In this document: positions 18,737-52,242 of the stretch, piece by piece
How positions within the stretch are numbered: position 1 is the first letter of the stretch
How the letters are laid out: each line of letters opens with the position of its first letter
Source of the DNA: Romeriopsis navalis LEGE 11480
Lineage (GTDB): Bacteria > Cyanobacteriota > Cyanobacteriia > Leptolyngbyales > Leptolyngbyaceae
Length of the DNA stretch: 52,242 bases
Assembly (NCBI RefSeq): GCF_015207035.1
Contig: NZ_JADEXQ010000037.1
Location: forward strand, 1-52,242
Direction of reading: 5' to 3'
The notes under the pieces: generated by a model
Told to the model about the DNA's origin: nothing
Database searches by the model: none
What the model saw: only the letters and a program-made list of their open reading frames with translations
Program-made: the position numbers and the translations under genes

Positions 18737-19105
18737 TTATCCGGCTTGCCCAACTGGCTCAGCCGCTGCTTCCTCGGCGCGGCGACGGACTTTGAAGTCA
18801 CTGCCCCACGCCTGCATTAGCTGCAGGATGGGTGCGAGGGATCGACCAAATTCTGTCACTTCATACTCGACTCGGGGCGGCACTTCGGCATAGACATGCC
18901 GCGCCACGACACCATCTGCCTCCAACTCGCGCAATTGGAGCGTAATCATCCGCTCCGTGGCATTGGGCGTTAGTCGTCGTAGCTCCCCGAAGCGCTTGCG
19001 CCCATCCAACAAATGGCACACCAGAATCGGCTTCCAACGCCCCCCGATCACGCTCAGCGTTGCTTCCACATCGCAACCCGTCTTCCAATTGTAGTTCCGC
19101 GCCAT
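18737..19105 (-). CDS. HxlR family transcriptional regulator
   Basis: 122-residue winged-helix regulator from the ATG at 19105 (MARNYNWK); an in-frame start at 19129 adds eight residues. HxlR signatures: the conserved N-terminal Cys in [20 protein letters not shown], then [30 protein letters not shown] and the wing [14 protein letters not shown]. HxlR proteins often sense aldehydes, quinones or other electrophiles through that Cys, and typically control a divergent oxidoreductase gene, as here. The C-terminal tail is Ala/Glu-rich. Confidence 0.92.
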
Positions 19106-19268: not shown

Positions 19269-20279
19269 ATGATGAAAGCCATTGGCTATAGGGATGCCGG
19301 TCCAATTGCCGCCCCTCACGCCCTAATTGAATTTGAGACCGAGACACCGGAGCCGGGTCCCATGGATCTGCTGGTGGAAGTGCGCGGGATTTCGGTCAAT
19401 CCAGTCGATGTCAAAGTCCGGGCCACGGCTTCGCCGGAGGGGGGCGCGCGAATTCTGGGTTTCGATGCCGCTGGTGTGGTCAAAGCCGTCGGGGCCGAAA
19501 CGACCCGGTTCAAACCCGGTGATGCGGTGTTCTACGCTGGCGACCTCACCCGGCCCGGGACGAATGCGGCGTTGCACGTTGTCGATGAGCGGATTGTCGG
19601 ACGGAAACCGACCGCTCTAGGGTTCACTGAGGCGGCGGGTATGCCACTCACCAGCATCACGGCCTGGGAAATGCTATTTGATAGTTTTGGGCTCAAAGCC
19701 GGCGAAGGGGCGGGTGAAGCCTTGCTGGTGATCGGCGGCGCAGGCGGCGTGGGGTCAATCTTGATTCAGCTCGCTAAACAACTGACAGGACTCACGGTTA
19801 TTGCCACGGCATCGCGGGACGATACGCGGGCTTGGGTAAAAAAGATGGGAGCCGACCATGTGATCAACCACCGCAATCCGCTTGATGCAGAAATCGCCGC
19901 GCTGGGGATTGCGCCACGCTATGTTGCAGCACTGACTCAGACCGGCAGACATTTTGAGGCGATCCAAAAGCTGATTAAACCCCGGGGACATATCGCACTG
20001 ATTGATGACCCGGAATCATTGGATATTCTGCCCCTGAAGGTCAAGGCCCTATCAGTCAGTTGGGAGTTTATGTTTACGCGATCGATGTTCCAAACGGCAG
20101 ATATCGCGGCCCAACATCACCTGCTAAACCGCGTCGCCGATCTACTGGATGACGGCACGCTGATTTCAACGGTGAATCACCACGGCGGCACATTAAGTGT
20201 GGACAACCTCCGCAAAGCCCATGAATTCCAGGAAAGTGGCAAGGCGATCGGCAAGACCGTGCTAGACGGTTTCAGCTAA
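19269..20279 (+). CDS. Zinc-type alcohol dehydrogenase-like / quinone oxidoreductase (MDR)
   Basis: Medium-chain NAD(P)H-dependent oxidoreductase of 336 residues, first gene of the cluster. The GroES-like half has [19 protein letters not shown] and [12 protein letters not shown]. The Rossmann half has [20 protein letters not shown]. The usual Cys/His zinc ligands of true alcohol dehydrogenases are not apparent, so it is probably a zinc-free quinone/enone reductase-like enzyme. GAGGA lies 11 bp before ATG 19269. The upstream in-frame start at 19161 would fall inside the promoter. It is divergent from the HxlR gene. A tandem repeat runs across its stop codon. Confidence 0.9.
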
Positions 20280-20307
20280 TCCCTAACCCGACTAATCCCT
20301 AACCCCA
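20276..20307. repeat. 16-bp tandem duplication across the ADH stop codon
   Basis: CTAATCCCTAACCCGA (20276-20291, containing the TAA stop) is followed directly by CTAATCCCTAACCCCA (20292-20307), 15 of 16 identical. Confidence 0.85.
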
Positions 20308-20346
20308 GATCCACAACGCAAGCCCGATTAACGCAGGACACCCAAC

Positions 20347-20706
20347 ATGGCCAAACTCACCATCACCGGAAACGTGGTTGCCCATCCGGCCAAGATTAAT
20401 TTAGTCAAAGCCGAACTAGAAAAGCTCATCCCGATCACGCGGCAAGCCGCCGACCACATTCAATATGACCTACATCAGGACCAGGAGAATCCGGCTTACT
20501 TTATGTTCTCCGAAAACTGGGAGTCGCGAGCAGGCGGGCCAATCCAAATCAATACGCCACACCTGGAAGCATTGATGGCCGCTGCGGAAGTTGATATTGC
20601 ACAATGGCCAATGCAGATGAATGCGCCACACCTTGATGCGTTTATGGCCGCTACAGAAGGGGCGATCGCGCAATTTTGGCTCCGCGAAATGACATACATC
20701 GCTTAA
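20347..20706 (+). CDS. ABM-domain (quinol/antibiotic biosynthesis) monooxygenase, copy 1 with internal duplication
   Basis: Small ABM-fold protein, 119 residues, normally about 95. It belongs to the putative quinol monooxygenase group (YgiN-like): KLTITGNVVAHPAKINLVKA, ITRQAADHIQYDLHQD, YFMFSENW. The excess is exactly 23 residues: P65-W87 (PIQINTPHLEALMAAAEVDI...) repeats as 88-110 (PMQMNAPHLDAFMAATEGAI...), while the neighbouring copy has one unit. The duplication would extend the last helix/strand pair and may alter folding. AGGA precedes the ATG. Confidence 0.85.
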   Translation: MAKLTITGNVVAHPAKINLVKAELEKLIPITRQAADHIQYDLHQDQENPAYFMFSENWESRAGGPIQINTPHLEALMAAAEVDIAQWPMQMNAPHLDAFMAATEGAIAQFWLREMTYIA

Positions 20707-20713
20707 TTGAGCG

Positions 20714-20775
20714 GATTTCAACGGTGAACAACTATGGCGGCGAATTCAGTGCAGACAACGTAATCGCTGAACCAT
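20714..20775 (+). pseudogene. Scrap of a second ADH 3' end between the two monooxygenase genes
   Basis: GATTTCAACGGTGAA at 20714-20728 is identical to 20162-20176 inside the ADH gene, and the following about 45 bp remain similar. In frame it reads ISTVNNYGGEFSADNVIAE against [20 protein letters not shown] in the intact gene. It is therefore the remnant of a duplicated ADH-monooxygenase block whose ADH copy has been mostly deleted. Confidence 0.8.
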
Positions 20776-20824
20776 CGAGCGCTGACAGACCAGTGATTGA
20801 ACAATCAAACTGAGGAAATGACAA

Positions 20825-21115
20825 ATGGCTAAACTCACCATTACCGGGAATGTACTGGCTGATCCCGACAAGATTGACCTCATCAAAGCCGAGCTAGAAA
20901 AACTCATCCCAATCACCCGCCAAGAAGCCGGTTGTATTCAATACGACCTCCACCAAGACAACGAAAACCCAGCCTACTTTATGTTCTACGAAAATTGGGG
21001 ATCCCGTGAGCTCTGGCAGAAGCACATGAATGCGCCCCACCTCGCAGCATTTATGGCGGCGACTGAGGGGGCGATTGAAAAGTTTTGGCTGCATGAAATG
21101 ACTCACATTGCCTGA
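20825..21115 (+). CDS. ABM-domain (quinol) monooxygenase, copy 2
   Basis: 96-residue ABM protein with the normal family length, closely related to the copy at 20347: shared MAKLTITGNV, LEKLIPITRQ, IQYDLHQD, NPAYFMF, MNAPHL and AFMAATEGAI. ABM proteins are cofactor-free dimeric monooxygenases or accessory proteins acting on quinols and related aromatics; the substrate here is unknown. GAGGAAATGACAA gives a good ribosome-binding site. The stop codon lies in a 15-bp tandem repeat. Confidence 0.88.
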   Translation: MAKLTITGNVLADPDKIDLIKAELEKLIPITRQEAGCIQYDLHQDNENPAYFMFYENWGSRELWQKHMNAPHLAAFMAATEGAIEKFWLHEMTHIA

Positions 21116-21166
21116 TTACGAATTGCCTGATTACGAATTGCCTGATTACGAATTGCCTAATTACCA
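21107..21166. repeat. 15-bp tandem repeat beginning at the stop codon of monooxygenase copy 2
   Basis: ATTGCCTGATTACGA occurs three times perfectly (21107-21121, 21122-21136, 21137-21151) and once degenerate (21152-21166). The unit is a multiple of three, so the text reads IA-stop-LR-IA-stop-LR repeatedly. Confidence 0.92.
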
Positions 21167-21188
21167 ATAATTCAATCGGAAATATCCC

Positions 21189-22034
21189 ATGAACTACGAC
21201 AACTTCACCACATTCAATGTCAAAGTCGAAAACGCGATCGCGTGGGTCACGTTTGACTATCCACCAGTCAATATTCAGGGTTTACCGATGCTCGCGGACC
21301 TCAATATGCTGGCCCAAAAGCTCGAAGCCGATCGCGATGTCAAAGTCGTTGTCTTCCAATCGGCTCATCCCGAAATCTTTGTTGCCCATGCTGACACGAA
21401 CTTCCTGAAGGATATGTCAGGCACAGCCGTCTCCCGTGACGAAGTTAAACTGCTCGATTTACAGGTTGTACTGGAGCGCATCAGCAAACTGCCCCAGGCC
21501 ACGATTGCCAAGATTGAAGGCTTTGCGCGAGGCGGGGGTCACGAATTTGCACTGGCTTGCGACATGCGCTTCGCCGCCCGTGGTAAGGCGAAGTTTATGC
21601 AGATGGAAGTGGGCATGGGTATCCTGCCATGTGGCGGTGGCGCATCCCGCATGGCCCGTCAAACCGGCCTAGGGAAGGCGCTCGAAATCATCCTCGGGGC
21701 CCAAGACTTTGATGCGGATCAGGCTGAAGCCTATGGCACCGTCAACAAGGCCCTCGAACCGGAAGCAATCGGCCCCTACGTGGAAGCCTTGGCTCAACGC
21801 ATCGCGCTTTGGCCGGCTGAATCGATCAATGCCTGCAAGCAAACCGTCTATGCTTCCATTGACAAACCCATTGATGAAGCCCTGAAAGACGAAGCCTATT
21901 GGCTCTATCAAGCCACCAGTCAAACGCCAGCATTAAAGCGCTTTACCTGGGCGGATGAAAAAGGCGCACAGTTTGATATGGGCAACCAACGCAGCTGGCC
22001 AGATATGGTGGTTAGTGTTCAGGCAGTGAATTAG
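21189..22034 (+). CDS. Enoyl-CoA hydratase/isomerase (crotonase) family protein
   Basis: 281-residue crotonase-fold enzyme. The oxyanion-hole segments are AHPEIFVAHADTNFL and KIEGFARGGGHEFALACDMRF, and GILPCGGGASRMARQTG resembles the second catalytic region. The first acidic residue of classical hydratases is not obvious and could be Glu in EVGMGI or absent. CoA-ester chemistry is inferred from the family; the substrate is unknown. It lies 73 bp after the monooxygenase gene in the same orientation and ends before a hairpin. Confidence 0.88.
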   Translation: MNYDNFTTFNVKVENAIAWVTFDYPPVNIQGLPMLADLNMLAQKLEADRDVKVVVFQSAHPEIFVAHADTNFLKDMSGTAVSRDEVKLLDLQVVLERISKLPQATIAKIEGFARGGGHEFALACDMRFAARGKAKFMQMEVGMGILPCGGGASRMARQTGLGKALEIILGAQDFDADQAEAYGTVNKALEPEAIGPYVEALAQRIALWPAESINACKQTVYASIDKPIDEALKDEAYWLYQATSQTPALKRFTWADEKGAQFDMGNQRSWPDMVVSVQAVN

Positions 22035-22066
22035 CGACTGACATCAATCTTGGCCCACGCCCTAAA

Positions 22067-22097
22067 TCCCTCTGCTAAATTTGGCAGAGGGACTTTG
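22067..22097 (+). terminator. Hairpin after the enoyl-CoA hydratase gene
   Basis: TCCCTCTGC (22067-22075) pairs with GCAGAGGGA (22084-22092), followed by CTTTG. A likely partial terminator inside the cluster. Confidence 0.6.
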
Positions 22098-22192
22098 CCA
22101 CTCGCCTTCCCCCAGAATCGGAAGTAAGGCGCAGATTTATCGTCAATTCAAAGATCGTCGATGGCAACCCAAGCCAGTGACCGGAGTTAACC

Positions 22193-23170
22193 ATGCTCAC
22201 ATCTGTCGAACCGATCAAGTTCAAGTCAATCAATCGAGGATACGACACCGTATTTCGACCCAATCGGTTGAGTCTGGGGTTAGTGGTTCCCATTGAGAAC
22301 TACAACCACAACCCAGTGCCGACGCTGGCCCATCATCTGGAGCGGGTTCAATTGGCTGAGCAACTGGGATTTGCTGCCGTTTGGCTACGGGATGTGCCGT
22401 TTGATGTGCCATCCTTTGGGGATGCAGGTCAGACGTATGATCCGTTTGTCTATCTGGGCTTTTTGGCAGGGCAAACTGAGCAGATTGCCTTGGGTGTCGC
22501 CAGTATCATTTTGCCACTGCGACATCCGGCCCATGTGGCGAAGGCGGCGGCGAGCGCGGATGTCCTTTCTGGGGGGCGGCTGATTCTGGGGGTGGCTTCT
22601 GGCGATCGTCCCGAGGAGTATCCCGCGCTGAATTTGCCCTTTGGCGATCGTGGCGCAAGATTTCGCGCCAGTTTTGACTACATCCGGCACATGAGTGAGG
22701 ACAGTCCAACCTTTGAAAACAGCTATGGCCAACCCAACGGTGGCATGAATATGTTACCGAAGCCGGTATCGGGAAAACTGCCACTGTTGATTACAGGTGG
22801 TAGCCAACAAGACCCCGAATGGATTGCGCAGCATGGGGATGGTTGGATGACTTATCCGCGCAATCCGGTGGCGCAGGCACAGGTGATTCGTGATTGGCAG
22901 GCGCGGGTGCAGACGGCGGGGAATTCGGCTAAACCGGTGATGCAGCCGCTGTATATTGATCTGACTGAAGATCCTGATGCTGTGCCACAAGCGATTCATT
23001 TAGGGTTGCGGCTGGGTAGTAAACATCTACGATCGCATCTCAAAGCGCTAGAGGCAATTGGCATCAATCATGTCGCACTAAACCTACGCTTTAACCAAGC
23101 CGACATCGAGACAACGCTGCAACGTCTTGCCGATGACGTATTGCCAGACTTCGCACAATCACAGAAGTAG
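22193..23170 (+). CDS. LLM class flavin-dependent oxidoreductase
   Basis: Luciferase-like monooxygenase fold, 325 residues, binding FMN or F420. Signatures: LSLGLVVPIENYNHNPVPTL, EQLGFAAVWLRDVPF, LASIILPLRHPAHVAKAAAS (start of the barrel), and GGRLILGVASGDRPEEY. The closest remembered group is the TIGR03571-type LLM oxidoreductases of unknown substrate. GGAG precedes ATG 22193. The stop codon is inside a 12-bp tandem duplication (reads QK-stop-PQK-stop). Confidence 0.88.
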   Translation: MLTSVEPIKFKSINRGYDTVFRPNRLSLGLVVPIENYNHNPVPTLAHHLERVQLAEQLGFAAVWLRDVPFDVPSFGDAGQTYDPFVYLGFLAGQTEQIALGVASIILPLRHPAHVAKAAASADVLSGGRLILGVASGDRPEEYPALNLPFGDRGARFRASFDYIRHMSEDSPTFENSYGQPNGGMNMLPKPVSGKLPLLITGGSQQDPEWIAQHGDGWMTYPRNPVAQAQVIRDWQARVQTAGNSAKPVMQPLYIDLTEDPDAVPQAIHLGLRLGSKHLRSHLKALEAIGINHVALNLRFNQADIETTLQRLADDVLPDFAQSQK

Positions 23171-23183
23171 CCACAGAAGTAAG
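23160..23183. repeat. 12-bp tandem duplication across the LLM stop codon
   Basis: CACAGAAGTAGC (23160-23171) is followed by CACAGAAGTAAG (23172-23183). The TAG stop (23168-23170) is followed in frame by TAA, giving QK-stop-PQK-stop. Confidence 0.8.
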
Positions 23184-23199
23184 CCCAGGAAACAAGACG

Positions 23200-24003
23200 A
23201 TGCAAAAAACGATTCTGATTACCGGCTCAACTGATGGCATTGGCTTAGCAACCGCTAAGATGCTGGTAGCACAGGGCCATAAGGTATTGCTGCATGGGCG
23301 GAATTCGACAAAGTTGGCAGAGGTGGAAACAGCACTCGCGGCGACCGGTGGGCATGTAGAAAGCTACGTGGCTGATCTGTCGCGCATGGCGGATGTCGAG
23401 GCGCTAGCAAAAGCCGTATCGGCCAAGCACACCCAACTAGATGTGTTGATCAACAATGCAGGAGTTTATCGCACGCCGCATTCCATTACCCAGGACGGTC
23501 TGGATATTCGATTTGTGGTGAATACAATCGCGCCCTATCGCCTCACGCAACGGCTCATGCCACTGATGGGAGCAGATGGACGGGTGATCAATCTGTCTTC
23601 AGCAGCACAATCCCCGGTCGATACAGCAGCAATGGCTGGACAAACGGCGCTAACCGAAGGCACAGCTTATGCCCAAAGCAAACTCGCACTGACGATGTGG
23701 TCGTACAGTATGGCGCTAGCGCGGAAGGAAAATGGCCCGATGATCGTCGCAGTGAATCCGGGATCGCTGCTGGGCAGCAAAATGGTGAAAGAAGCCTTTG
23801 GGATTGCCGGTAGTGATATTGGCATTGGTGCAGATATTTTGACGCGGGCCGCACTATCAGCGGAATTTGCTACGGCTTCTGGACAATATTTTGACAACGA
23901 TGCGGGTCAGTTTGCCTCGCCCCATCCGGATGCTCTCGATGTCCAAAAATGCGCGGCGATCGTACAGGCGATCGAGGCGATTCTGGTGGCGATTGGAGAA
24001 TGA
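23200..24003 (+). CDS. SDR family oxidoreductase
   Basis: 267-residue short-chain dehydrogenase with TGSTDGIGLATAKML (cofactor loop), LINNAGVYRTPH, VINLSSAAQSP and YAQSKLALTMWS (Tyr-x-x-x-Lys). NADP preference is suggested by the Arg in HGRNSTKL. Last gene of the HxlR-divergent cluster, 29 bp after the LLM gene with AGGA before the start. Substrate unknown. It converges with the GNAT gene. Confidence 0.9.
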   Translation: MQKTILITGSTDGIGLATAKMLVAQGHKVLLHGRNSTKLAEVETALAATGGHVESYVADLSRMADVEALAKAVSAKHTQLDVLINNAGVYRTPHSITQDGLDIRFVVNTIAPYRLTQRLMPLMGADGRVINLSSAAQSPVDTAAMAGQTALTEGTAYAQSKLALTMWSYSMALARKENGPMIVAVNPGSLLGSKMVKEAFGIAGSDIGIGADILTRAALSAEFATASGQYFDNDAGQFASPHPDALDVQKCAAIVQAIEAILVAIGE

Positions 24004-24059
24004 CAGGAACAACATGAAGATCGATCAGCAATTGAAAAAAATCCCGTTGAACAAAGGGG

Positions 24060-24617
24060 CTAAACCCATCGCCATATCCCCTGCGCATCTCTGACCGCCC
24101 GGCCTGGGTTAGATTCGCAATATCCCGCTAACACCAACGATTCCTTGACTGGCACTGGAGGTTGGTTCTCACGCATACTGCCTGGCAGAGTTAGACGCAC
24201 ACAAGTACAAGGATAAGCTTGGCATGAACCAGGAAAGGTTGCGGAGATGCGGAATCCCATCTGTTGATAGAACATAACCCCGCCAGTATTCTCAAGCGCT
24301 GTTGTCAGAAACGCATCCGGGCCTAGCTGCGGCAATACATACTCCACAAGCTGCTGGCCGACACCACGTCTGTGGTAGTTCGGGGAGACATACAACCATG
24401 AAAGTTCCGGTGGTTCGATACACATAAATCCGACAATATGATTGTTCATCAAGGCAACAAAGCAATCGCCCGCAAAGAATTCATCTTCTTCTGCAACGTC
24501 CTCTAAAGCTAGGACAGCCGCACCAGGCATAAAGTTATCGACTTCGATCGGACGGGCGGCATCATGAACCGTACAAACCTCAGACCAGTCGCTGTCTTGA
24601 TATCGACGAATATGCAT
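24060..24617 (-). CDS. GNAT family N-acetyltransferase
   Basis: 185-residue acetyl-CoA-dependent acyltransferase. The acetyl-CoA pyrophosphate loop is visible as LYVSPNYHRRGVGQQLVEYV, preceded by VGFMCIEPPELSWL and followed by NTGGVMFYQQMGFRI. The C-terminal about 60 residues (after SATFPGSCQAYPCTCVRL) extend past the GNAT core. The acceptor substrate is unknown. Confidence 0.88.
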   Translation of the reverse strand: MHIRRYQDSDWSEVCTVHDAARPIEVDNFMPGAAVLALEDVAEEDEFFAGDCFVALMNNHIVGFMCIEPPELSWLYVSPNYHRRGVGQQLVEYVLPQLGPDAFLTTALENTGGVMFYQQMGFRISATFPGSCQAYPCTCVRLTLPGSMRENQPPVPVKESLVLAGYCESNPGRAVRDAQGIWRWV

Positions 24618-24714
24618 GACTGATTTCGTTAATGTTGCCTATTAACTGTCGCCGATCAATTTTGCATGACAACCCGCTCAACGATCAACGTTCGGAGTGC
24701 ATGGGTATGGTTTA

Positions 24715-25525
24715 GGGAGTGTCATCAATTGAGCCAGATGACGCAGGCAGCGAGATAAATTGCTCCGAGAAAGTTGTTTGCCCGTTTGTCATAGCGAGTA
24801 GCAATTGCCCGATACTGTTTGAGTTTTGCAAAGAAACTCTCAATCAGATGCCGTGCTTTTTACAAGTGCTGGTCATAGTCATAGTCGCGTTGGACGCATC
24901 GATTTTGCTTGGGCGGAATTACAGCCACTTTCCCCGCGGCTTGGAGCGGGACCAATACCCGTGCATCCGCATCATAGCCGTTGTCGGCTATGATAACCCT
25001 CGCCTTCAGCGGCGGTAATAGCTGGTCTGCACCCTCTAAAGTACAGGCTTGACCCGGTGTCAGATGGAAATCTAAGGGATTACCCAAGGCATCACAAGTG
25101 GCATGAATCTTTGTGCTTAATCCGCCTTTGCTGCGACCGATGGCTTCTTGGCTGGCTGTTTAGCTTGGGCTCCAGCACTATGCTGATGTGCTCGCACAAT
25201 CGTGGCATCAATCATCGCATAGCGTTATCGAGTGATGTCGATAACGCTTGAAATACTCGTTCCCAGACCCCGGTTTTGTTCCATTGACTGAAACGAGTAT
25301 GCACCACGCGAAAATCACCAAGTCGAGTGGTAAATCCCGCCAGGGAATCCCCGCTCGGTAACGGTGCAATACCGCTTCGACAAATAAGCGATTATCCTTG
25401 GCTGTCACACCCACGGTCTCGGCACGACCCGGTAACAGCTCCTATCATCACATAGGGCATGGCGGCGTGCCATAAGACACCTCAAAGTCCTTGATGATCC
25501 AGTGTATCTATTTGATGACACACCC
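24715..25525 (-). mobile_element. Decayed IS5-family insertion sequence with TA target duplication
   Basis: Inverted ends GGGAGTGTCATCAA (24715-24728) and TTGATGACACACCC (25512-25525) match at 13 of 14 positions and are flanked by TA on both sides (24713-24714, 25526-25527). The 811-bp length and TA target fit IS427/IS1031-like IS5 groups. The transposase is broken, so the element cannot move by itself. Confidence 0.85.
24725..25473 (-). pseudogene. IS5-family transposase, multiply frameshifted
   Basis: The minus strand reads in pieces: a start MARRHALCDD, then [20 protein letters not shown], then [19 protein letters not shown], then PLDFHLTPGQACTLEGADQL and IADNGYDADARV, and finally KARHLIESFFAKLKQYRAIA and FLGAIYLAACVIWLN. 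These are the expected blocks of a DDE IS5 transposase in order. At least four frame changes and an internal TAA (before KARHLIE) separate them. The gene is dead, recently enough that all blocks remain recognisable. Confidence 0.88.
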
Positions 25526-26159
25526 TAGACTTAACAGACGTTAGGTGATCGATTGATATTTGAGAACAAAAATATAACCAAACAGCTCCACCAACAAATT
25601 TAAAGCCCTCCTCAAAAACTTGGACAATTGAATAGGGCAAAGGAATACGGGACTGGATGAGATCAGTTCCTATTGATAAAGCGAGTAATGTACCTGCCAA
25701 AATGAAAGAAAAACTGTCAACAGCTATGATCTTACGAAAATGCCGCACTAGTAGTGCTCCAGCAGTCAATGCATAAGCTAGATAACATAGCTTTTGGTCT
25801 ACATATCGATCATGTATCATAAAAAAGTCATCAACAGCTAGAATCGATGAAAATGTTCCTACTAAAAAAACCATCTCTTTGCCTCTAATACTTGATTTGC
25901 TATTGAATAATGAAAAAAAGCAAATCGCAGTAGAAGAAACCCATAACCAAACACCGATGTTAGACAAAAAGCCTAGAAAACTTGACTGACCGCTTTGTTG
26001 AGCAGGATCTCTTAAGATCTCCATCAGAGTAAATCCATTGCCAAGAAGAAACGCTAGAGAAGCAACAAAAAATATACTTGCAGGCAGCAAAGAAAACAAT
26101 AAGCAACCTATAATAATTTTTTGAGTGGTATTTTTCTTCAGAGATTTCAAATAATACAT
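25482..26159 (-). CDS. AT-rich multi-pass membrane protein, C-terminus replaced by the IS end
   Basis: 226 residues with about six hydrophobic segments (IIIGCLLFSLLPASIFFVAS, NIGVWLWVSSTAICFFSLF, FSFILAGTLLALSIGTDL and others), and charged loops. No family recognised. AAAGGAG five bases before ATG 26159 fixes the start; the longer in-frame TTG at 26213 is rejected. Base composition is clearly more AT-rich than neighbours, suggesting transfer. The last residues (VCHQIDTLDHQGL) are encoded by the IS end; without the IS the frame would continue KPYPCTPNVDR and stop near 24677. Confidence 0.65.
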   Translation of the reverse strand: MYYLKSLKKNTTQKIIIGCLLFSLLPASIFFVASLAFLLGNGFTLMEILRDPAQQSGQSSFLGFLSNIGVWLWVSSTAICFFSLFNSKSSIRGKEMVFLVGTFSSILAVDDFFMIHDRYVDQKLCYLAYALTAGALLVRHFRKIIAVDSFSFILAGTLLALSIGTDLIQSRIPLPYSIVQVFEEGFKFVGGAVWLYFCSQISIDHLTSVKSRVCHQIDTLDHQGL

Positions 26160-26247
26160 CAGGTACTCCTTTCTTATTAGTAAACTCAACTGTTGGTAGA
26201 TGGAAATTTTCAACCTCTGGTTGAATCATAGCAATCCTGAATGAATT

Positions 26248-26586
26248 ATGAGTCGCGGTGACACGCGCATTCTAGCCTTGTATCTTGAGGGAGCCAGTGA
26301 AGCCGTTTAACAGCCTCGGTGTTTGACACCGGAATCGTAGCCAGGGTCACGGCTAAAATTGAGCAAGGCGTAGTCAGACCCTTACAGCCTGGGTGAATTC
26401 ACACTGCACCGTAGCCATGGTAATAACTACGCCGTGGGCTGTGAATCGAAACTCGAACAGTCGCGCGAAGCTCAACTTCGGATGCGCAAGGAGGAGTTGG
26501 CCTTACAGCGAGATCGAACCATTCTCTTCAGGATAGTTGATGATTATGGCCAATACCAATCAATGCTGGGTAGGAATCGATATTAG
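26248..26586 (+). pseudogene. Remnant of a gene of unknown function
   Basis: Three plus-strand pieces line up if two frameshifts are allowed: MSRGDTRILALYLEGASEAV, TASVFDTGIVARVTAKIEQG..., and EFTLHRSHGNNYAVGCESKL continuing into a charged helical tail (SREAQLRMRKEELALQRDRT) and LGRNRY-stop at 26584. Stop codons interrupt each frame. I do not recognise the parent family. It ends exactly against the SRPBCC gene. Confidence 0.5.
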
Positions 26587-27005
26587 TTGGGTTGCAGCGA
26601 TCTGGCGGCGGCGATAAAACGCTGAGTTTGTGCCGGTAAACCATTGGCATGTTTTCGTCCAACCAATACCCCCCATATGGGCGCAAACATGCCTTCAATC
26701 ACAATTTGGATATCGATCGTTGTGGCATCACCTTTGATCAGCCGATGCGTTGTTTTCATCGTTGCAAAGGGCATTTCGCAAATATCGGCATAGGTCACGG
26801 GCGGCTCAAAGTCACAAATCTGGAAATGCAAACGTGGACCACCTTTGGGCTTGAGCATAAACGTCGAATTCTTGGCCGGGACTCCATCAACGCTTATTGT
26901 TTCAATATTTTCATCAATCTCGGCCCATCCCGAAACGTCGGCAAGTACCGACCAGAGTGCTTCTGGAGATAGGTCGGTCTGCTGCTGGTAATGATGAGTC
27001 CACAT
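26583..27005 (-). CDS. SRPBCC family protein (START-like lipid/ligand-binding fold)
   Basis: 140-residue helix-grip fold protein from ATG 27005 (MWTHHYQQQTDLSPEALWSV). The opening matches polyketide-cyclase/SRPBCC proteins (LSPEALWSVLADVSGWAEID), with the central VTYADICEMPFATMKTTHRL strands. The ligand is unknown. Longer in-frame starts run through the divergent MarR gene and are rejected. It is divergent from the MarR gene with a shared 8-3-8 operator and is its likely target. Confidence 0.85.
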   Translation of the reverse strand: MWTHHYQQQTDLSPEALWSVLADVSGWAEIDENIETISVDGVPAKNSTFMLKPKGGPRLHFQICDFEPPVTYADICEMPFATMKTTHRLIKGDATTIDIQIVIEGMFAPIWGVLVGRKHANGLPAQTQRFIAAARSLQPN

Positions 27006-27038
27006 AATTCGAGTATCCTGCAAAGCAACGCACAATAT

Positions 27039-27057
27039 TATCTTGACTATCAAGATA
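27039..27057. promoter_or_regulatory. MarR operator between divergent SRPBCC and MarR genes
   Basis: TATCTTGA and TCAAGATA are separated by CTA: a perfect inverted repeat of the size MarR dimers bind. It lies 16 bp before the MarR ATG (27073) and 34 bp before the SRPBCC gene. Confidence 0.7.
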
Positions 27058-27072
27058 AATGTTTTAACTGCT

Positions 27073-27501
27073 ATGGTCAACCACGTCGAATCACTGCTGC
27101 TGGAAACCCGGCAGCTATACGAAGCCATGTACCGGTTTGATGCGGCAGCTGCGGCTGAACTCGGTATCCACCTCAGCGACCTCCGGTGTGTGAATGCGCT
27201 AGAAAATGGCCCACTCACAGCGGGCGCGATCGGTGAGCGGCTGGGACTAACGAGTGGCTCAGTCACGGCCCTAATCAATCGGCTGGAAGCAGCAGGATTT
27301 GTCGTCAAACGTCGTTCAAAAGCCGATGGACGGCAAGTCCAGGTGCAGCTAAAACCCAAATTCTATCAACAAGCCGATGCTATCTATGCAAGGCTGGGCA
27401 GGTCAGTATCAAGCCAGTTTCAAGAGCTGAGTGTGGCGGAGATAGAACAGGCGATCGCCACAATAAACCGATTGGCAGCCGGATTTGACCAGGCGGACTA
27501 G
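27073..27501 (+). CDS. MarR family transcriptional regulator
   Basis: 142-residue winged-helix dimer. The DNA-binding region reads LTAGAIGERLGLTSGSVTAL, then NRLEAAGFVVKRRSKADGRQ with the wing Asp-Arg pair. The terminal helices (VNHVESLLLETRQLYEAMYR and the C-terminal QELSVAEIEQAIATINRL) form the dimer. The ATG at 27073 is preferred because the earlier TTG at 27043 falls inside the operator. It probably represses itself and the divergent SRPBCC gene; the ligand is unknown. Confidence 0.9.
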   Translation: MVNHVESLLLETRQLYEAMYRFDAAAAAELGIHLSDLRCVNALENGPLTAGAIGERLGLTSGSVTALINRLEAAGFVVKRRSKADGRQVQVQLKPKFYQQADAIYARLGRSVSSQFQELSVAEIEQAIATINRLAAGFDQAD

Positions 27502-27607
27502 CGCGAAGTGCCGCCTAGAAATGATTGCTCAGTTGTAGAAGTTCGATCGCAAACACACAATCAACGACACAAGCATTCCAGGATGAACGACACCCTTTGG
27601 CTTGGCA

Positions 27608-27654
27608 CTGTCTTGTTAAGGAATGAATTTGTATCAAGCCCTTTAACAAGACAG
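27608..27654. terminator. Hairpin between MarR and peroxiredoxin genes
   Basis: CTGTCTTGTTAA (27608-27619) pairs perfectly with TTAACAAGACAG (27643-27654), with further G-C pairs inside. It lies between two convergent genes and may terminate both. Confidence 0.5.
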
Positions 27655-27720
27655 CAACGCGCCTGATCAGCGACGTGATTCGGGGCGATCGAGCTACAAA
27701 CCAACAACGATTCAAACAGG

Positions 27721-27756
27721 ATTTCTTAAAGCGATTGCATTTCTTAAAGCGATTGC
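27721..27756. repeat. 18-bp tandem duplication across the peroxiredoxin stop codon
   Basis: ATTTCTTAAAGCGATTGC occurs twice in a row (27721-27738, 27739-27756). On the minus strand it reads QSL-stop-EM-QSL-stop. Confidence 0.9.
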
Positions 27757-28403
27757 ACTTCCGCTAGCACTTCAGCAGGCTCGGCCCGCAGCGTGTAGTC
27801 CGCATTCGCATAGGCATAGCGCACCGTACCCGATGTATCCACAACATAGGTCGCGGGGACCGGCAAGTCATAGCTCTCATCGCCATTATGCGCGGGAATA
27901 TCAATGCCAAATCCTTGATACAACGGACGCAGCGATGCATCGAGCGAAAATACCAATCCATAATCACGGGCAACCACATTCCCCACATCGCTCAGCACCG
28001 GAAAGCTCAGCTCATGCTTCTCTTGCATCGTCAGGGAATTATCGGGCAGCTCCGGCGAGACCGCTACGACCTGCGCTCCGGCTTGCTGAAACTCCGGCAA
28101 TAGCTGCTGAAATGCGCGAATTTCTAAGTTGCAGTACGGGCACCATTCACCCCGATAAAAATTCAACACCACTGGCCCATTCACCAATAATGCGCTGAGC
28201 TTCACTCGCTTACCCGTGGGGTCAGACAATTCAAAATCGGGTGCTGTTGCGCCCACCTTCAAGCTCTTATCCACAATGCCGGAATTCGCCAAATCAGCCG
28301 TGGCTTTCGACATTGTTTCCACCACTGCCTGGGGGACTTTTGGAAGAAAGTCATTTTGAAAGTCTTTGAGCTGTGATGCAAGTGTGTTTTGAACCGTCAT
28401 CAT
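27744..28403 (-). CDS. Peroxiredoxin-like AhpC/TSA family protein
   Basis: 219-residue thioredoxin-fold peroxidase-like protein. After an N-terminal helical lead of about 45 residues comes GATAPDFELSDPTGKRVKLS and the active-site strand VLNFYRGEWCPYCNLEIRAF with Cys88 and Cys91 in a CPYC motif. The C-terminal PATYVVDTSGTVRYAYANAD is typical of the family. It would reduce peroxides or act as a thiol oxidoreductase in the cytoplasm. AGGAG before ATG 28403 sets the start; the longer frame overlaps the TetR gene. It has its own promoter with a TetR-type site. Confidence 0.9.
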   Translation of the reverse strand: MMTVQNTLASQLKDFQNDFLPKVPQAVVETMSKATADLANSGIVDKSLKVGATAPDFELSDPTGKRVKLSALLVNGPVVLNFYRGEWCPYCNLEIRAFQQLLPEFQQAGAQVVAVSPELPDNSLTMQEKHELSFPVLSDVGNVVARDYGLVFSLDASLRPLYQGFGIDIPAHNGDESYDLPVPATYVVDTSGTVRYAYANADYTLRAEPAEVLAEVQSL

Positions 28404-28447
28404 CTGTCTCCTAGAAAGGGAAAATTGAACAAGTATGCGAAATGGGA

Positions 28448-28463
28448 ACCAATCGGTCAACAA
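28448..28463. promoter_or_regulatory. TetR-type operator, peroxiredoxin promoter
   Basis: ACCAATCGGTCAACAA, 15 of 16 identical to the site at 29143-29158 upstream of the TetR gene, same orientation. Confidence 0.6.
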
Positions 28464-28510
28464 AAGCCCAAAAAAAGGCCACAATCCAACTAACTTGACG
28501 CCACCAAACG

Positions 28511-51686: not shown

Positions 51687-52242
51687 CTACCGCCATAATC
51701 CGGCGACCCAATCCACTGTCTTCTCCCACCATGATGGCTGCGGTGTTGGCTGACGTGCTTCTAGCCAGGGGCGGGCATCGCAGGCGGCTTTCGCATCCCG
51801 GCCAACCTGGATTAATTCTCCACTGACTACGGTTTCTGGTGCATTTAGCAATGGGTGATACTGGAGTCGATCGCAGGCCAAACGCATCAAGCCGGACCAA
51901 TCACCGGGCCAAATGCGCAGGGTCTTGTCACTACTGCCACTGACAATGCGTTTTCCATCGGGGCTAAAGGCGACAGACCAGACAGAATTTGAATGTCCTT
52001 TGAGCGGTTGCCCGATGGGTTGTCCGGTTTGTGCATCCCAGAGTCGCAGCGTCTTGTCCCAACTGCCACTGACAATGCGTTTGCCATCGGGGCTAAAGGC
52101 GACAGACAAGACAGGATTTGAATGTCCTTTGAGCGGTTGCCCGATGGGTTGTCCGGTTTGTGCATCCCAGAGGCGCAGCGTCGCGTCCCTACTGCCACTG
52201 ACAATGCGTTTGCCATCGGGGCTAAAGGCGACAGACCAGACA
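51687..52242 (-). CDS. WD40-repeat protein, C-terminal end (cut by window edge)
   Basis: About 185 residues of the C-terminus of a larger beta-propeller protein; the gene enters from the right edge. At least two 43-residue repeats are nearly identical (SVAFSPDGKRIVSGS, then TLRLWDAQTGQPIGQPLKGH), separated by 129 bp at DNA level, which invites recombination. The tail after the last blade contains DWSGLMRLACDRLQYHPLLN and ends WVAGLWR. Cyanobacterial WD40 proteins with near-identical repeats often carry an N-terminal NACHT or caspase-like domain; that part lies outside the window. Confidence 0.9.
   Translation of the reverse strand, partial: VWSVAFSPDGKRIVSGSRDATLRLWDAQTGQPIGQPLKGHSNPVLSVAFSPDGKRIVSGSWDKTLRLWDAQTGQPIGQPLKGHSNSVWSVAFSPDGKRIVSGSSDKTLRIWPGDWSGLMRLACDRLQYHPLLNAPETVVSGELIQVGRDAKAACDARPWLEARQPTPQPSWWEKTVDWVAGLWR

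What the first reader, a model, noticed from the sequence alone, without database searches (positions are those of the whole stretch)
20276..27756. Short tandem duplications spanning stop codons in four genes
The ADH (16 bp x2), second monooxygenase (15 bp x3-4), LLM enzyme (12 bp x2) and peroxiredoxin (18 bp x2) genes each have a tandem repeat containing the stop codon. In three the unit is a multiple of three and reiterates the same stop in frame: IA-stop-LRIA-stop, QK-stop-PQK-stop, QSL-stop-EMQSL-stop. This clustering is unexpected. It may be local replication slippage at gene ends, or backup stops or readthrough-generated C-terminal variants.
Basis: partly seen in the sequence, partly recalled or inferred. 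Interest (0 to 1): 0.65.

Follow-up and report, generated by a model that had tools for sequence, protein, structure and literature searches.

The report
Short tandem duplications across stop codons
In this cyanobacterium, short stretches of about 13 to 18 bases are often copied next to themselves across the ends of genes, where the extra copy leaves the protein unchanged; this looks mostly like a tolerated by-product of DNA copying errors rather than a backup stop system.

Summary
The repeats are real. Three of four are strong (ADH 16 bp x2, second ABM monooxygenase 15 bp x4, peroxiredoxin 18 bp x2); the LLM repeat is weak (10 of 12 bases). They belong to a genome-wide pattern: in 1.65 Mb of this cyanobacterial genome 22 strict arrays contain a stop codon and 2 span a start codon; a looser detector finds one at 41 of 936 gene ends outside the window. 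Density rises from 88 per Mb deep between genes to 315 just after stops and 990 across stops.

The stop lies in the first copy in 20 of 22, so the protein is unchanged. Units ignore the reading frame (9 of 22 multiples of three; 57 of 66 inside genes), second stops are not significantly preserved, and in-frame stops are not enriched. Backup-stop and readthrough ideas fail; slippage survives.

Best reading: ordinary short duplications, tolerated and preserved at gene ends. None of six other cyanobacterial samples peaks on the stop. Against it: this genome's excess over the nearest flank is 1.8- to 3.1-fold, and in convergent spacers the strict arrays still favour stops (9 crossing against 8 inside, p=0.002), though the looser detector there gives 1.6-fold (p=0.09). 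A stop-linked duplication hot spot is not excluded.

The parts
20276..20305 (+). 16-bp tandem duplication spanning the ADH stop (TAA 20277-20279); the unit is largely two heptamer-like halves CTAATCC/CTAACCC
19269..20279 (+). zinc-type alcohol dehydrogenase gene (PF00107, PF08240); start chosen by a home-made gene caller
21107..21168 (+). 15-bp x 4.1 tandem array spanning the stop (TGA 21113-21115) of the second ABM monooxygenase; repeats IA-stop in frame
20825..21115 (+). second antibiotic-biosynthesis-type monooxygenase gene (PF03992); start chosen by a home-made gene caller
23160..23183 (+). weak 12-bp duplication (10 of 12 identical) spanning the LLM stop (TAG 23168-23170); second copy carries TAA in frame
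22193..23170 (+). luciferase-like monooxygenase (LLM) gene (PF00296)
27721..27761 (-). 18-bp x 2.3 tandem duplication spanning the peroxiredoxin stop (27744-27746)
27744..28403 (-). peroxiredoxin / AhpC-TSA gene (PF00578); start chosen by a home-made gene caller

Best explanation
These are ordinary short tandem duplications, mostly 13-18 bp in noncoding DNA, made by DNA copying errors (slippage or template switching) across this cyanobacterial genome. They are seen where they do no harm and last longest. Duplicating a unit that contains the stop leaves the gene with its original stop in the first copy and pushes the spare copy into the 3' untranslated DNA, so any unit length is silent for the protein. 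Inside genes mainly units of a multiple of three survive, and near starts duplications would disturb the ribosome-binding site. The coding half of a stop-crossing pair is also held by selection on the protein, so the pair stays recognisable longer. Shown here: the distribution, the frame behaviour, the first-copy rule. Inferred: the slippage step itself, the harm near starts, and the weak selection on 3' flanks.
For: Strict arrays in 1.65 Mb: 66 coding, 42 intergenic, 22 stop-spanning, 2 start-spanning. Stop in the first copy in 20 of 22, and in 41 of 45 with the loose detector. Units a multiple of three: 57 of 66 coding, 15 of 42 intergenic, 9 of 22 stop-crossing, so stop-crossing arrays behave as noncoding. 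Unit lengths resemble those of other noncoding copies: 15-17 bp in 19 of 38 crossing, 13-17 bp in 24 of 36 within 60 bp after stops (window left out). Density falls with distance from the stop. In convergent spacers of 60 bp or more the loose detector finds crossing copies at 19 of 284 ends against 11 and 13 in the next two zones, p=0.09; a decay simulation, with coding sites assumed to change at 0.3 of the neutral rate, gives crossing pairs 1.27-1.28 times longer detectability. In none of six other cyanobacterial samples is crossing denser than the first flank, although counts are small in all but G027. Exact copies mostly have 2 bp or less of flanking homology: 11 of 12 stop, 20 of 24 intergenic, 32 of 35 coding. 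Ku was found in 0 of 29 genomes, which argues against Ku-dependent end joining.
Against: With strict arrays and the window left out, crossing density is 3.1 times that of the first 40 bp of flank (19 against 11 arrays, p=0.0017); with the loose detector 1.8 times (41 of 936 against 21 of 871, p=0.03), unlike the other cyanobacteria pooled (23 of 827 against 37 of 765, p=0.04 the other way; heterogeneity p=0.0035). Convergent spacers, where no promoter is expected, should be evenly rich if only tolerance counted; the strict arrays there are not: 9 crossing (1413 per Mb), 6 within 40 bp (568), 2 further in (131); crossing against all inside p=0.0024, against the first 40 bp p=0.066 (window left out). 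No second strain was available to see births.
Confidence: 0.66

Rival explanations
1. A duplication hot spot tied to the end of translation in this lineage: after ribosomes leave at the stop, uncoupled RNA polymerase pauses or backtracks, conflicts with replication and leaves short duplications of about 16 bp there.
For: Crossing density above the nearest flank in this genome, also in convergent spacers with strict arrays; unit lengths centred on 15-17 bp; little flanking homology. Cyanobacteria lack Rho, and in Synechococcus elongatus most transcription units are not ended by known pathways (PMC13289151, abstract and outline seen). The link from polymerase backtracking to breaks is recalled, from no call.
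Against: No stop peak in six other cyanobacterial samples. Array coverage is not raised from 45 to 16 bp before stops. With the loose detector the convergent excess is 1.6-fold, p=0.09. Perfect, presumably young, copies do not make up a larger share at stops: 5 of 41 against 27 of 123 intergenic, p=0.25.
Confidence: 0.2
2. Selection for fail-safe second stop codons, or for readthrough-extended proteins.
For: Three of the four reported repeats give an in-frame second stop; 12 of 14 in-frame units keep the second stop.
Against: No bias to multiples of three (9 of 22, 14 of 41). Out-of-frame units keep the stop in 16 of 25 (p=0.27). No in-frame enrichment of downstream stops. In a relative's LLM gene the in-frame copies of a stop-linked 15-bp array read CAG, not a stop (L008, by eye). 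Ho and Hurst report no evidence for selection for additional stops in eubacteria (PMC6764699, abstract and outline seen).
Confidence: 0.04
3. A role for the duplicated 3' DNA in RNA (terminator, spacing of a terminator from the ribosome, RNA stability).
For: Array coverage is highest in the first 60 bp after stops.
Against: Folding z-scores of the four window ends are 0.67, -0.38, 1.07 and 1.43. None of the 8 terminator-like sites found in 19800-28500 lies at the four arrays, and their number is that of shuffles (8 against 9.2). By eye no motif is shared among the units, and the place of the stop within the array varies (3 to 25 bases from its start).
Confidence: 0.07
4. Footprints of mobile elements: target-site duplications left at stops after excision.
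For: Little flanking homology.
Against: Unit lengths vary from 10 to 33 bp and up to four copies occur; coding and intergenic duplications share the character. Copies further than 70 bp apart were not searched for, so elements still in place would have been missed.
Confidence: 0.03

Closest known systems
Short tandem duplications by replication slippage (recalled as a class)
   Same: Adjacent copies, any sequence, mainly in-frame units inside genes
   Different: Here frequent and piled up at gene 3' ends, with units of about 13-18 bp
TAACTGA direct repeats of Beggiatoaceae and cyanobacteria (PMC4679880; passages and section 15 read)
   Same: Tandem arrays, also in cyanobacteria; in 13 cases there repeats overlap the stop of an upstream gene, and the author argues that insertions at the ends of proteins are more likely to become fixed
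   Different: There one fixed heptamer; here each array has its own unit and a longer period
Cyanobacterial short tandemly repeated repetitive (STRR) heptamers (recalled; only a search listing seen)
   Same: Tandem arrays in cyanobacterial intergenic DNA; the ADH unit looks like two heptamers
   Different: Removing arrays with internal period 7 leaves this genome's counts outside the window unchanged
Additional (fail-safe) stop codons (PMC6764699, abstract and outline seen)
   Same: In-frame stops downstream of the main stop in part of the cases
   Different: Not frame-biased, not enriched, not significantly conserved here

Membership tests
Neutral short tandem duplication (slippage type) | Copies adjacent, unit sequence taken from the local DNA | tested here: met
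   the detectors look only for adjacent copies
Neutral short tandem duplication (slippage type) | Frame selection only where the protein would change | tested here: met
   multiples of three 57 of 66 coding, 15 of 42 intergenic, 9 of 22 stop-crossing; stop in first copy 20 of 22
Neutral short tandem duplication (slippage type) | Even density over equally unconstrained noncoding DNA | tested here: inconclusive
   convergent spacers: loose detector 19, 11, 13 of 284 (p=0.09); strict arrays 9 crossing against 8 inside (p=0.0024)
Neutral short tandem duplication (slippage type) | New copies arise with no preference for stops | not testable with these tools
   no close strain or mutation-accumulation data; the 28 relatives listed are of other genera
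Fail-safe additional stop codons | In-frame stops enriched or conserved downstream | tested here: not met
STRR heptameric repeats | Seven-base unit | tested here: not met
   units 12-18 bp in the window (the ADH unit is partly heptameric); the internal-period-7 filter removes none of the 19 stop-crossing arrays outside the window
TAACTGA direct repeats | Repeated TAACTGA unit | tested here: not met
   TAACTGA is in none of the four window arrays, either strand
Transposon target-site duplication | Constant-length duplication flanking an insert | tested here: inconclusive
   length not constant; spaced copies were sought only up to 70 bp apart

The most novel reading that the evidence does not exclude
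In this cyanobacterial lineage the end of translation marks a hot spot for short (about 16 bp) DNA duplications, a mutational process coupled to stop codons, perhaps through RNA polymerase that backtracks once ribosomes have left.
Probability: 0.18. Interest if true: 0.65.

Novelty: new member of a known kind. Interest (0 to 1): 0.35.

Why it matters
It gives a simple way in which 3' untranslated DNA can lengthen without touching proteins, and a caution that in-frame duplicate stops are not by themselves evidence for backup stops. If the excess at stops in this genome held up, it would link translation termination to mutation in a phylum without Rho.

Tried and rejected
Backup stops: rejected on frame, retention and enrichment. 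Terminator or RNA structure: no signal at the four window ends. Ku-dependent end joining: Ku found in 0 of 29 genomes. Heptamer STRR: the filter changes nothing in this genome outside the window. Mobile-element footprints: thought unlikely because unit length is not constant, but only spacings up to 70 bp were searched. Aggregate lag-matching around stops gave no clear peak. An early count by zones in convergent spacers saw some arrays from both ends and was replaced. Conservation of the same arrays in relatives could not be tested properly: the best full-length 16S match among the relatives searched is about 91% identical. By eye: the peroxiredoxin of G027 (15-bp unit) and the LLM gene of L008 (15-bp unit) have duplications of their own and the second ABM gene of G027 has degenerate repeats, while the ADH orthologs and the other LLM orthologs shown have none that I noticed. 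Age: 5 of 41 crossing pairs are perfect against 27 of 123 intergenic, p=0.25.

Literature: full-text searches listed no paper whose title or opening lines describe stop-crossing short duplications as a class; several lists were cut (15 of 421, 12 of 42, 12 of 23, 10 of 50), and the library lacks most subscription journals.

Rows dropped: low-complexity arrays in the main detectors (the first loose run had no such filter); overlapping weaker arrays; L009 was left out of the cyanobacterial loci after because it is a contig of G027; spacers shorter than the stated limits. Gene calls come from a home-made hexamer caller, or from long open frames for mixed loci. Stretches were cut at 20 kb, so genes at cut ends may be missing or shortened. 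The counts compared were copied by hand.

Full report
What is there. The window is contig 37 of an unnamed 6.47 Mb draft genome in 251 contigs. It is cyanobacterial: two genomes listed as of the same class, G027 and G020, have matching contigs whose lengths equal those of named cyanobacterial records. The four reported repeats were read directly. The ADH, second ABM monooxygenase and peroxiredoxin arrays are strong. The LLM one is weak: 10 of 12 bases, not listed by Tandem Repeats Finder at minimum score 30, and its second stop is TAA where the first is TAG. Gene identities come from Pfam: zinc ADH, two ABM monooxygenases, enoyl-CoA hydratase, luciferase-like monooxygenase, SDR, AhpC-type peroxiredoxin.

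Is it chance? No. I read 80 stretches of 20 kb from the same genome plus the window, 1.65 Mb, called 1250 genes with a simple hexamer caller and searched for ungapped tandem arrays of period 8-40. There are 132 arrays, 80 per Mb, against 5 per Mb in Markov simulations of 20 of the 81 stretches. 66 lie inside genes, 42 between genes, 22 contain a stop codon and 2 span a start codon.

Are stops special? Leaving the window out, and counting per position where a duplication could begin (crossing: 16 positions per gene end), the density is 990 per Mb across stops (19 arrays), 315 in the first 40 bp after the stop (11), 223 at 40-100 bp (8), 88 further in (11) and 71 in spacers without a 3' end (11); across against first flank p=0.0017, against 100 bp and more p=3e-10. 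A looser detector with a shuffled-partner null finds crossing copies at 41 of 936 gene ends (null 0 or 1.5), 21 of 871 just after the stop (null 3 or 2), 14 of 775 at 20-34 (null 0 or 1), 7 of 637 at 50-64 (null 0 or 1) and 9 of about 1200 inside genes (null 4 or 2).

Is it for backup stops? Units that cross stops are multiples of three in 9 of 22 strict and 14 of 41 loose cases, as expected for one in three, while inside genes 57 of 66 are. The second stop survives in 12 of 14 in-frame and 16 of 25 out-of-frame units (p=0.27). Stops in the next ten codons are not enriched in frame (490, 544 and 498 of 10,330 for frames 0, 1, 2). This agrees with Ho and Hurst (PMC6764699; abstract and outline seen), who found no evidence for selection for additional stops in eubacteria.

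Why at stops then? The stop sits in the first copy in 20 of 22: the protein is untouched whatever the unit length. Unit lengths resemble those of other noncoding duplications here, though centred a little higher, as expected if longer units cross stops more easily. With the loose detector in convergent spacers of 60 bp or more, crossing copies occur at 19 of 284 ends against 11 and 13 in the two adjacent zones (p=0.09), and a decay simulation with an assumed constraint on the coding half predicts about 1.28-fold; in codirectional spacers it is 16 of 529 against 10 and 6 (p=0.04). MacGregor (PMC4679880; passages and section 15 read) made a similar tolerance argument for another tandem repeat.

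Result against this reading. With strict arrays, convergent spacers are not evenly filled: outside the window 9 arrays cross a stop (1413 per Mb), 6 lie within 40 bp of one (568) and 2 further in (131); crossing against all inside p=0.0024, against the first 40 bp p=0.066. Tolerance of promoter-free DNA alone would not predict that, unless the middle of these spacers is constrained by something else. Numbers are small.

Other genomes. In the loose detector the samples of G027, G013, G005, G006, G028 and 21 cyanobacterial loci together give 23 of 827 crossing and 37 of 765 in the flank (p=0.04 towards the flank), so no stop peak; G027 gives most of these counts. The 58 non-cyanobacterial loci give 2 of 448 crossing, equal to the null of 2, and 1 of 600 with strict arrays. 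Orthologs of the window genes in relatives sometimes carry different duplications at the same stop: peroxiredoxin in G027 and LLM in L008 (by eye). This fits recurrent formation in array-rich genomes.

What stays open. This genome's crossing-to-flank ratio (1.8, p=0.03) differs from the other cyanobacteria (0.58; heterogeneity p=0.0035). These comparisons were made after looking at the data and on small counts. The birth process was not observed; Ku-dependent joining is unlikely because Ku was found in 0 of 29 genomes, and exact copies mostly share 2 bp or less of flanking homology. Slippage or template switching is therefore inferred, not shown.

Verdict. A real and statistically solid pattern, most likely with an ordinary explanation, plus an unexplained excess right at stops in this genome that leaves room for a stop-linked mutational process.

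Noticed in passing
window 20159-21117: The two ABM monooxygenase genes look like a tandem duplication that also carried the 3' end of ADH: 20347-20582 is 74% identical to the start of the second gene, and 20159-20207 (inside ADH) is 80% identical to DNA just after the first ABM gene. ABM1 also seems to hold an internal in-frame duplication at offset 69 bp (38 of 47 bases match).
   Followed up: partly
window 20276-20305: The ADH unit is largely made of two heptamer-like halves (CTAATCC, CTAACCC), reminiscent of cyanobacterial heptamer repeats (recalled).
   Followed up: partly
window 24720-25510: Transposase remnant (DDE_Tnp_1 fragment at 24860-25087, minus strand) between the operon and the peroxiredoxin; the extent is judged by eye.
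   Followed up: partly
window 19269-24003: ADH - ABM - ABM - enoyl-CoA hydratase - LLM - SDR gene row with an HxlR regulator gene upstream (18737-19105, minus strand). The LLM protein is 63-83% identical in the 80 kept loci (of 260 found) from cyanobacteria, proteobacteria and other phyla, and several cyanobacterial loci hold neighbouring genes too. Function unknown to me.
   Followed up: no
   Followed up: partly
window 51915-52242: 129-bp tandem repeat in a WD40 repeat protein running off the contig end.
   Followed up: no
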